A DNA stretch of 38,837 bases. It comes from an uncultured Clostridia bacterium. GTDB lineage: Bacteria > Bacillota > Clostridia > TANB77 > CAG-508. Position 1 is the stretch's first letter. Each line of letters opens with the position of its first letter. Under the pieces are notes generated by a model that was not told the origin of the DNA, did no database searches, and was given only the letters and a program-made list of their open reading frames with translations. The stretch covers positions 1-38,837 of the forward strand of contig CANQKT010000049.1 of NCBI GenBank assembly GCA_947624525.1, read 5' to 3'. Shown one piece after another: positions 4,813 through 33,030 of the stretch. A program made the position numbers and the translations under genes.

Positions 4813-4874
4813 AAAAATTTTGGGACGGCCTGTGAATTAATTTTGTAGGGCGTTCTTAGTTATGTGGGGGCCGC

Positions 4875-5031
4875 TCAAATTTAATTATTATGTAACATTG
4901 TAAAATATATTAAGATTCCGTTCGTTTGCTGGCGTGAGGATTTGGGAAAAAGACTTTAGGTGGGGGCGCCAAACTGCGCACTCCACTTCATCTTAATATA
5001 TTTTACAATGTTACATAATAATTAAATTTGA
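4875..5031. repeat. long palindromic element, copy A
   Basis: perfect 41-bp inverted repeat 4875-4915 / 4991-5031; centre ttccgttcgtttgctggcg...cgccaaactgcgcactcca shared in part with copies B and C. Confidence 0.85.
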
Positions 5032-5122
5032 ACTACTCTACATTAATATGTTGAGAACACTTTATTGGATTAATTCACTGGTACTCCCTAAATTTTTAGT
5101 AAGAGAAAGAGGTGTTTTTAGA

Positions 5123-7262: not shown

Positions 7263-8796
7263 ATGGAAAAAAAGGTTACAATGCTAATGATATTAGATGG
7301 TTTTGGAAATAATCCTAATGAAAAAGGAAATGCAGTAAAACTTGCAAATACACCTAATATTGAAAAACTAATGAAAACATGCCCAACTACAGAGATTTAT
7401 ACAAGTGGTTTAGCAGTTGGACTTCCAGAAGGACAAATGGGAAATTCAGAAGTAGGTCACACAAATATAGGAGCAGGAAGAGTTGTATATCAAGAACTAA
7501 CAAGAATAACAAAATCAATAGAAGATGGAGACTTTTTCAGCATACCTGAATTTGTAAAGGCAATTGAAAATTGTAAACAAAACAACACTAAATTGCATAT
7601 AATGGGATTAGTTTCAGATGGTGGTGTGCATAGCCATATACGCCACTTGTTCGGTTTACTAGAGCTTGCAAAAAGAAAAGATTTTGAGGATGTATATGTT
7701 CACTGTTTCCTAGATGGAAGAGATACTCGGTCCAGCGTCAGCAGAGAATTATATTATGCAATTAGAAGATAAGATGAAAGAAAAAGGTGTAGGAAAAATT
7801 GCAAGTATTTCAGGAAGATTTTATGCAATGGATAGAGATAATAGATGGCAAAGAATTCAAAAGGCTTATGATGCAATGGTAAATGGTATTGGAGAAAAGG
7901 CATCATCAGCAATTGGAGCAATAGAAAGTTCATATCAAAAAGAAGTATTTGATGAATTTGTTGTACCAACAGTAATTTGTAATGGTGATATACCAGTTGC
8001 AACTATTGATAAAAAAGATTCTGTTATATTTTTCAACTTCAGACCAGATAGAGCAAGGGAAATTACAAGAACCTTAGTAGATCCAGATTTTAAAGAGTTT
8101 GAAACAAAAAAATTAGATTTATGTTTTGTTTGTATGAGACAATATGATGAAACAATACCAAATGTTAATATAGCATTTAAACCAACAGTTCTAGTAAATA
8201 CTTTTGGTGAATATGTAAGTAAAAAAGGATTAACACAACTTCGTATTGCAGAAACCGAAAAATATGCCCATGTAACATTCTTCTTTAATGGTGGTGAAGA
8301 AAAACAATATAAAGGTGAAGATAGAATTTTAGTTCCATCACCAAAAGTAGAAACATATGATATGAAACCAGAAATGAGTGCAGGGGAAGTTACAGAAAAA
8401 GTTATAGAAGCAATAAATTCAAGAAAATATGATGCTATAATACTAAATTACGCAAATCCAGACATGGTAGGTCATACAGGAAACTTAGAAGCTGCTATTA
8501 AAGCCCTTGAATTTATAGATGATTGTGTAGGAAAAGTAATTAAGGCAATAAATGAAGTAAATGGTGTAGTATTAATTACAGCAGACCATGGAAATTCAGA
8601 ACAAATGATAGATTATAAAACAGGAGAACCACATACAGCTCATACTACAAATCCTGTCCCATTAATTTTGGTGGGAATGGAAAATGTCAAATTGAAATCA
8701 GGACGTTTAGCAGATTTAGCTCCAACAATGTTAGATATTATGGGCTTAGAAAAACCAAAAGAAATGCTGGGGGATAGCTTATTGTTAAAGAAATAA
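7263..8796 (+). pseudogene. gpmI: 2,3-bisphosphoglycerate-independent phosphoglycerate mutase, split by a +1 frameshift near 7728-7731
   Basis: ORF 7263..7772 ends ...[16 protein letters not shown] 7714..8796 continues in the shifted frame as [15 protein letters not shown]...; together they cover the full family length. Confidence 0.85.
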
Positions 8797-8847: not shown

Positions 8848-9609
8848 ATGAAAGATACTCAAGATATAAAAAAGATATATACGGGTATTCAACATCAGCT
8901 AAATAATTTAATTCCTGAAAAATGGGAAAGCATATATTTATATGCTGCAGTAATGTATCAATTAAATAATTTAGAAACATGGGAAATGTATTTTTATTAT
9001 ATACCTAAAGGTATTTTAAAAAAGAATCCAATTAATGTATATGAAGTGCCTAATAGGTTCAATGTTGATGAGGAGGAATATTTAGAACTTGTAGATAATT
9101 TGTGTAATACTATAAAAACGTTACATAAAGAATATAAAAATGTTTATAACAAAGAATGGACAAATATGGTAATAGCAATTAAGGATTCGCAATTTTTAAT
9201 AGAGTATAACGACGACAATTTGATAAAATCAAAATATAGAAGTAAGGATAGGCATATAATTTTCAAACATAAATACTTAAATATTGCTTTACAAAGTTTT
9301 AGTAAAAAGGAAAGAAAGATTATACAAGAATATTTAGATGATGAAGAATATAATATGGTTTATGATAGGTATTTTGAATATATACCAAAAGAAGAAGTGC
9401 GTAATTATATAAAATATGAAAAAGATGATGAGTTTGAAGAAAATATATATTCAACTCAATTGATGGAGGCACAAGATAGCAAAGTTGGTATTTTTCGTTT
9501 AATATGGAATTGGTTAAAGCAAAAAAGAATAAACAAGAAAAAAGTAGGTGAACCAATTAGGGAGCCAATGTTAGATCCTAAGATTCAAATTCTTAGTGAT
9601 ATTTTTTAG
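8848..9609 (+). CDS. YezG/DUF600-like (immunity/antitoxin superfamily) protein with C-terminal extension
   Basis: IQHQLNNLIPEKWESIYLYAAV...YFYYIP...; KEWTNMVIAIKDS.F.IEYNDDNL pattern. Confidence 0.55.
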   Translation: MKDTQDIKKIYTGIQHQLNNLIPEKWESIYLYAAVMYQLNNLETWEMYFYYIPKGILKKNPINVYEVPNRFNVDEEEYLELVDNLCNTIKTLHKEYKNVYNKEWTNMVIAIKDSQFLIEYNDDNLIKSKYRSKDRHIIFKHKYLNIALQSFSKKERKIIQEYLDDEEYNMVYDRYFEYIPKEEVRNYIKYEKDDEFEENIYSTQLMEAQDSKVGIFRLIWNWLKQKRINKKKVGEPIREPMLDPKIQILSDIF

Positions 9610-9746
9610 TTACAGTTCAGGTGCTTAAATTATGGGAAATTTAACAACATGAACTGTAACCCATATTTTAATTATTAAAAAAATTTTTTATAAAAGTGTA
9701 GAATAAATTTTTAAAATATGGTATCATATAATGTGTGTATATAAAT

Positions 9747-18808: not shown

Positions 18809-19045
18809 TGCAATTAGGAAGTTAATATAAGAATTATGTAAAAGTAGGAAGTATATTAACATTCCGTACGCTTACTGGCTTGTTCTTATCAAAAGGCAAA
18901 AGGGACTTTTTGTTGGAAGAAGGTTTTTGTTTTTGCTTGTCCCTTTTGCGTCTTTTGATAAGCCTCGCCAAACTGCGCGCTTTGTACTCCATTGTTAATA
19001 TACTTCCTACTTTTACATAATTCTTATATTAACTTCCTAATTGCA
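18809..19045. repeat. long palindromic element, copy B
   Basis: 52-bp perfect inverted repeat (18809-18860 / 18994-19045); nested inner hairpin cttatcaaaaggcaaaagggac ... gtcccttttgcgtcttttgataag. Confidence 0.9.
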
Positions 19046-20044: not shown

Positions 20045-20235
20045 TCGTTAAGTTAGCTACTTAATGACTTTTCTATAATTTGATTTTATCATATATTAAT
20101 ATATTTTCAAGTGTTTTTTGAAAAATTTTTATTGTAACTTTTGTATAGGAAAATTTTATATAAAAACTTCCAAAATATTGAAATATAAGCAAAGTTTCTA
20201 ATATGTAAAAAATCATTAAGTAGCTAACTTAATGA
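20045..20235. repeat. putative invertible promoter segment 1: IR-L 20045-20067, IR-R 20213-20235
   Basis: IR-L tcgttaagttagctacttaatga vs reverse complement of IR-R tcattaagttagctacttaatga (22/23 identical). Confidence 0.8.
20083..20110 (-). promoter_or_regulatory. minus-strand promoter inside segment 1 (points away from the downstream gene)
   Basis: on minus strand TTGAAA (20110-20105), 16 nt, TAAAAT (20088-20083), extended -10 TGa. Confidence 0.7.
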
Positions 20236-22693: not shown

Positions 22694-22887
22694 TCGTTAA
22701 GTTGCATACTTAATCAATTTCTATACACTTTTATTTTACCATAGATTAATATATTTTCAAGTGTTTTTTCAAAAAAATATTTTAGAAAATTTTGGTGTAC
22801 AAGTTATACATTAAAAATTTTGCAAAGTATTGATATATCAGTAAATTATTGAATTTTAGTATTATCATAAAGTATGCAACTTAATGA
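22694..22887. repeat. putative invertible promoter segment 2: IR-L 22694-22716, IR-R 22865-22887
   Basis: IR-L tcgttaagttgcatacttaatca vs reverse complement of IR-R tcattaagttgcatactttatga (20/23 identical, 15-bp contiguous core). Confidence 0.8.
22733..22760 (-). promoter_or_regulatory. minus-strand promoter inside segment 2
   Basis: TTGAAA-N16-TAAAAT on minus strand, extended -10 TGg. Confidence 0.7.
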
Positions 22888-24593: not shown

Positions 24594-24629
24594 TTTTTAT
24601 TTACAGGTTATTTTTAATAAACGAAATTT

Positions 24630-24821
24630 TCGTTAAGTTATTTACTTAATCAAGTTTTCATATTCTTATTTTACCATAGAACAATATTATTTCAATAGTT
24701 TTTTTCAAAAATTTTTTGCGAAAATTTAATAGTCAACTTAGATATTACTAACTCCCAAAATTATTGATATATAAGTATTTTCAATTGTTTAGATAAAATC
24801 ATAAAGTAAATAACTTAACGA
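24630..24821. repeat. putative invertible promoter segment 3: IR-L 24630-24652, IR-R 24799-24821
   Basis: IR-L tcgttaagttatttacttaatca vs reverse complement of IR-R tcgttaagttatttactttatga (21/23 identical). Confidence 0.8.
24668..24695 (-). promoter_or_regulatory. minus-strand promoter inside segment 3
   Basis: TTGAAA-N16-TAAAAT on minus strand, extended -10 TGg. Confidence 0.7.
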
Positions 24822-24897
24822 AAAGTGAAAATACTTAAATCAGGCAGAATTTTGATAATTTGAAACTTTTTATAAGAAATAATGGAAGGAGCTATGT

Positions 24898-32815: not shown

Positions 32816-33030
32816 GTCAAATTCAATAGTTATGTAAAAGGGAGAAATATATTAACATTTCGTACGCTTACTGGCTTGGACTTATCAAAAGGCAAAAGGG
32901 ACTTTTATATAGAAGAAAGTAAACTTTTATGTTTGTCCCTTTTACTTCTTTTGATAAGCCTCTCCAAACTGCGCGCTTTGTACTCCATTGTTAATATATT
33001 TCTCCCTTTTACATAACTATTGAATTTGAC
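32816..33030. repeat. long palindromic element, copy C
   Basis: 41-bp perfect inverted repeat 32816-32856 / 32990-33030; central ~130 bp nearly identical to copy B. Confidence 0.9.

What the first reader, a model, noticed from the sequence alone, without database searches (positions are those of the whole stretch)
4875..5031. Palindromic element family with conserved centre and divergent yet perfectly complementary arms (copy A, inside the gap-pgk intergenic)
Seen: 41-bp arms are perfectly self-complementary, but differ at many positions from copies B (18809-19045) and C (32816-33030), although all copies are homologous (TTATGTAA...AATATATTAA). The centre (CGTxCGxTTxCTGGC...CCAAACTGCGCxCT...CTCCA) is conserved. 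Perfect complementarity despite divergence implies arm-to-arm correction (template switching/cruciform conversion) or strong hairpin selection. Here it sits within a glycolytic gene cluster and could affect pgk transcript processing.
Basis: partly seen in the sequence, partly recalled or inferred. Interest (0 to 1): 0.7.

Follow-up and report, generated by a model that had tools for sequence, protein, structure and literature searches.

The report
Mobile hairpin DNA with self-matching arms
These gut bacteria carry dozens of small jumping-DNA hairpins whose two arms keep changing together letter for letter, which suggests that the cell repeatedly copies one arm onto the other and offers a natural test of how matched double mutations arise.

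Summary
Copies A, B and C have 42-, 53- and 42-bp perfect arms. They belong to a family of intergenic palindromes with more than 20 copies in this 1.39-Mb genome. The family is found in 12 of 16 genomes of the genus and in no other genus tested. It has no Rfam match. Across 112 copies, 86 have perfect arms and only 0.8% of 4,736 arm pairs mismatch, while arms of different G000 copies differ by 19%.

Covariation reaches all four Watson-Crick pair types with almost no wobble. Mismatches are not enriched for G-T over A-C. Of 42 private paired changes, 25 are transversions. At seven loci shared with a sister species, at least 9 pairs changed on both sides and 3 on one side only. The neutral expectation is 0.5 and 23; inter-arm copying predicts about 12 paired changes, close to what is seen. 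This favours DNA-level arm-to-arm correction, most simply template switching in the hairpin, over RNA-structure selection.

Empty sites, some with short direct repeats, show that the element moves. It fits no named family: no transposase was tied to it, and Y1/RAYT genes are absent from three copy-rich genomes. An effect on pgk is untested.

The parts
4839..5085 (+). Copy A, whole element (approximate ends), between gap and pgk
   Evidence: Absent from the gap-pgk interval of relative G002, where gap and pgk matches resume 19 bp apart
4875..4916 (+). Copy A left arm
   Evidence: 42/42 complementary to 4990-5031
4917..4989 (+). Copy A conserved centre, 73 nt, imperfectly self-complementary
4990..5031 (+). 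Copy A right arm
4813..4838 (+). Left half of the GGGACGG-type hairpin that hosts copy A
   Evidence: The uninterrupted GGGACG..CGTCCC hairpin is seen in G002; outer inverted repeat I4
5086..5097 (+). Right half of the host hairpin (CTCCCTAAATTTTT region)
18809..19045 (+). Copy B palindrome (arms 18809-18861 and 18993-19045); subfamily with AGGTGCC foot
   Evidence: not found at the orthologous site of G013
18885..18963 (+). Nested second hairpin inside the copy B centre
32816..33030 (+). Copy C palindrome (arms 32816-32857 and 32989-33030)
   Evidence: G013 has a different palindrome with the same feet here
32881..32958 (+). Nested second hairpin inside the copy C centre

Best explanation
This is a genus-restricted, non-coding mobile repeat of roughly 230-310 bp. 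It consists of a conserved asymmetric core flanked by long complementary arms and conserved feet. SHOWN: it is dispersed, intergenic, absent from some orthologous sites, and its arms evolve in concert. INFERRED: when the element is single-stranded at the replication fork it folds into one long hairpin. A polymerase or repair enzyme then copies across the stem (template switching, or quasipalindrome correction), so a mutation in one arm is either erased or written into the other. Arms therefore drift at about the neutral rate while staying complementary. INFERRED: movement is carried out by an unidentified enzyme acting in trans on the core or feet, sometimes into the loops of existing hairpins such as terminators or REP-like repeats.
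For: Covariation: 30 of 42 arm pairs changed on both sides, 204 cells against 54 shuffled, and no pair varied on one side only. Mismatches: 37 of 4,736 pairs, G-T 13 and A-C 17; G000 1 of 642, against 19% between copies. Private paired changes: 42, of which 25 are transversions. Orthologous G000/G013 loci: 9 pairs changed on both sides, including G:C>T:A, C:G>G:C and A:T>C:G, plus one paired one-base indel, and 3 one-sided, in 297 pairs with about 3.9% flank divergence. Mobility: an empty site for L006 in G013 and for L166 in G000, with imperfect 9-11 bp direct repeats; copy A absent in G002. 102 of 103 copies lie outside ORFs of 100 aa or more. Genus restriction: 1 of 39 genera.
Against: Ectopic conversion between copies explains some haplotypes (L005/L163). 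Seven orthologous loci is a small set. No transposase was tied to the element and the direct repeats are imperfect, so ends and duplication length are uncertain. Elements show orientation bias in same-direction gene pairs (49 against 13), which leaves room for an RNA role. All genomes identified here are metagenome assemblies.
Confidence: 0.72

Rival explanations
1. The arms are held together by purifying selection on a transcribed RNA hairpin (mRNA stability, RNase III site or terminator), with ordinary compensatory mutations.
For: Strong RNA fold; orientation bias with flanking genes; conserved asymmetric core.
Against: Almost no G-U pairs or one-sided changes; G-T not enriched over A-C; most private pair changes are transversions that cannot pass through wobble; pair substitution close to the neutral rate; loci gained, lost and replaced between relatives.
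Confidence: 0.1
2. Arms are homogenised by ectopic gene conversion between dispersed copies, or are made perfect only at each new insertion, rather than by in-place inter-arm copying.
For: G013 L163 carries three linked changes that match another copy's arm; different palindromes occupy orthologous sites.
Against: 42 paired variants have no donor among sampled copies, 14 of them in the well-sampled G000; orthologous copies diverge by isolated paired changes while flanks and centre stay alignable.
Confidence: 0.15
3. Perfect arms are an artefact of metagenome assembly of inverted repeats.
For: All genomes seen are draft MAGs, and several contigs end at the elements.
Against: Several species assembled separately agree; a four-contig genome (G008) also has near-perfect arms; both arms are single-copy in the same molecule, so there is no low-coverage branch to remove.
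Confidence: 0.03

Closest known systems
REPINs / REP elements with RAYT (REP-associated tyrosine transposase)
   Same: Dispersed intergenic hairpins with compensatory changes across the stem (PMC3116915). The CGTC and GTAG tags reported for REPs (PMC3733652) also occur at the feet here (CCGTC and GTAGAGTA).
   Different: REPs are 20-40 bp; here the element is 230-310 bp. REPINs have conserved ends and a variable middle; here the core is conserved and the arms vary. No Y1 transposase was found in copy-rich G002, G013 or G014.
MITE-like palindromic repeats such as ERIC, BOX, RUP, YPAL, NEMIS, EFAR and bcr1 (from memory, apart from the BOX/RUP paper hit)
   Same: Small non-coding intergenic repeats of 100-300 bp that fold into long stems; gain and loss at orthologous sites.
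   Different: No sequence match was tested against these families directly. The near-perfect concerted evolution of long arms and the nesting in other hairpins are not features I know for them.
Quasipalindrome correction by template switching
   Same: Perfect stems and simultaneous two-sided changes; described for RNA genes (PMC8794818) and for coding palindromes of Nematomorpha mitochondria, where arms also evolve in concert (PMC6649704).
   Different: A mutational process rather than a family. Here it would act on a mobile bacterial repeat with dozens of replicate loci.

Membership tests
REP/REPIN | 20-40 bp unit with GTAG or CGTC tag at the foot | tested here: not met
   CGTC and GTAG strings occur at the feet, but the unit is 230-310 bp with 40-50 bp arms
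REP/REPIN | Associated RAYT (Y1) transposase in the genome | tested here: not met
   PF01797 found in 10 of 16 genus genomes but not in copy-rich G002, G013, G014; the G000 gene is flanked by GGGACGG repeats, not by this element. Draft genomes leave some doubt
MITE | Dispersed non-coding copies with empty sites in relatives | tested here: met
MITE | Target-site duplication of fixed length | tested here: inconclusive
   Two clean sites have imperfect 9-11 bp direct repeats; other sites have small indels
MITE | Ends shared with an autonomous transposon | tested here: inconclusive
   The end motif was searched in 16 genomes; no transposase gene was recognised, but the search was not exhaustive
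Rfam structured RNA | Score above a family's gathering threshold | tested here: not met
Quasipalindrome correction (template switching) | Two-sided changes at one locus without wobble intermediates | tested here: met
Quasipalindrome correction (template switching) | Dependence on replication enzymes or exonucleases | not testable with these tools
   Needs mutants

The most novel reading that the evidence does not exclude
The element multiplies through an obligatory hairpin intermediate, so that each cycle rebuilds one arm from the other by snap-back synthesis, and it inserts by preference into the loops of existing hairpins, giving nested palindromes.
Probability: 0.14. Interest if true: 0.85.

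Novelty: new variant of a known kind. Interest (0 to 1): 0.6.

Why it matters
Two-sided compensatory changes are normally read as proof of a functional RNA. Here dozens of replicate loci suggest that they can arise from DNA copying alone, at about the neutral rate and across transversions. That gives a natural data set to measure inter-arm correction and warns against calling structured RNAs from covariation alone.

Tried and rejected
(1) Rfam at gathering and relaxed thresholds: only chance miRNA-like hits. (2) Y1/RAYT as mobiliser: absent from three copy-rich genomes. (3) A 15-base pattern scan of genome contigs was too short and mostly returned chance matches; only 3 of 80 listed loci were real copies. 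(4) Integron attC-like sites: the core did not match the boxes I remember (inspection only). (5) An autonomous transposon with the same ends: none seen among the end-motif loci. (7) The two one-sided counts for L039/L161 are a register effect of a paired indel and were not counted as mismatches.

Full report
WHAT IS THERE. The window holds three palindromes with perfect arms: A 4875-4916/4990-5031, B 18809-18861/18993-19045 and C 32816-32857/32989-33030. A has a 73-nt centre. B and C have 131-nt centres that hold a second hairpin. Copy A folds far better than shuffled sequence as RNA (z -11) or DNA (z -10). There is no Rfam match.

THE FAMILY. Searches of the same genome found more than 20 copies. 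A covariance model from 27 copies found the family in 12 of 16 genomes of the genus. The weak matches in G001, G004, G010 and G012 point to a divergent subfamily, examples of which were read. A 145-genome sample of the taxonomic family gave matches in only 1 of 39 genera. Three relatives can be named by matching contig lengths: G013 is 'uncultured Clostridia bacterium Lapin-022__bin89', G014 is 'uncultured Lachnospiraceae SRR873610_bin.4', and G008 is 'Lachnospiraceae bacterium Phil5'. The element has an asymmetric conserved core, variable complementary arms, and feet (GGCC-GTC ... GAC-TACTCTAC) that continue into an outer stem.

ARMS EVOLVE TOGETHER. In 112 copies, 86 have perfect arms; 37 of 4,736 pairs mismatch, with G-T 13 and A-C 17. 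In G000 alone, 1 of 642 pairs mismatches in copies with 42-44 bp arms, while arms of different copies differ by 19%. In the 27-row alignment 30 of 42 pairs changed on both sides, no pair varied on one side only, and sliding the partner destroys the signal. Of 42 private paired variants, 25 are transversions. These cannot pass through a G-U intermediate.

ORTHOLOGOUS LOCI. Seven copies are shared by G000 and G013. Across 297 arm pairs, 9 changed on both sides and 3 on one side only, once two register artefacts from a paired one-base indel are set aside. Flank divergence is 154 of 3,947 sites (3.9%, summed). With no constraint one expects about 23 one-sided and 0.5 two-sided changes. Selection on pairing alone predicts few of either. 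Unbiased copying of one arm onto the other predicts about 12 two-sided changes. The data fit the last. In L008/L159 the two changes are G:C to T:A and C:G to G:C. In L010/L167 the nested hairpin also shows a paired G:C to T:A change.

MOBILITY. Copy A is missing between gap and pgk in G002, where a short GGGACG..CGTCCC hairpin occupies the site; in the window the two halves of that hairpin flank the element. L006 is absent at a 93-96% identical site in G013, and L166 (G013) at a 95% identical site in G000; both filled sites have imperfect 9-11 bp direct repeats at the junctions. G013 carries a different palindrome with the same feet at the copy C site, and a deletion between 9-bp repeats at the L014 site. 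102 of 103 copies lie outside ORFs of 100 aa or more. ORF calls are mechanical.

NESTING. The same core is found with unrelated outer arms: terminator-like stems in L066 and L077, a GTTACAGTTCAGGTGCC stem in L334 whose like exists without the core at window 9609-9660, and GGGACACC repeats in G008. The suggestion that the core enters the loops of existing hairpins is inference.

MECHANISM. Shown: concerted evolution of arms, gain and loss of copies. Inferred: hairpin formation at the fork and template switching as the copying step. The process is described for other stems (PMC8794818, PMC6649704). The mobilising enzyme is unknown. Y1 transposases do not track the copies, and the G000 Y1 gene is flanked by GGGACGG repeats instead.

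LIMITS. The genomes identified are draft metagenome assemblies. Orthologous loci are few. Ectopic conversion may contribute to at least one haplotype (L163). Families such as ERIC or bcr1 were compared from memory only. Orientation bias in same-direction gene pairs (49 against 13) is unexplained and could reflect replication direction or an RNA role.

Noticed in passing
window 20045-20235, 22694-22887, 24627-24824: A second inverted-repeat family (TCGTTAAGTT..TACTTAATGA) lies upstream of three similar ORFs that look like cell-surface proteins (20301, 22972, 24898).
   Followed up: no
window 9609-9660: Stand-alone hairpin GTTACAGTTCAGGTGC..; a similar stem carries the palindrome core in relative L334.
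   Followed up: partly
window 7263-8796: The phosphoglycerate mutase gene reads as two overlapping ORFs (169 and 360 aa), which suggests a frameshift or an assembly error.
   Followed up: no
L116 1317 and 2166: The single Y1 transposase gene of this genome is flanked on both sides by GGGACGG repeats, the type that also flanks copy A.
   Followed up: partly
L088 (G001), gap-pgk interval: An unrelated palindrome with roughly 50-bp arms sits in the same intergenic interval in another species.
   Followed up: no
L242 (G013), copy C locus: A different palindrome with other arms and centre but the same feet occupies the orthologous site.
   Followed up: partly
103 copies: Elements are oriented with transcription in same-direction gene pairs (49 against 13).
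   Followed up: no
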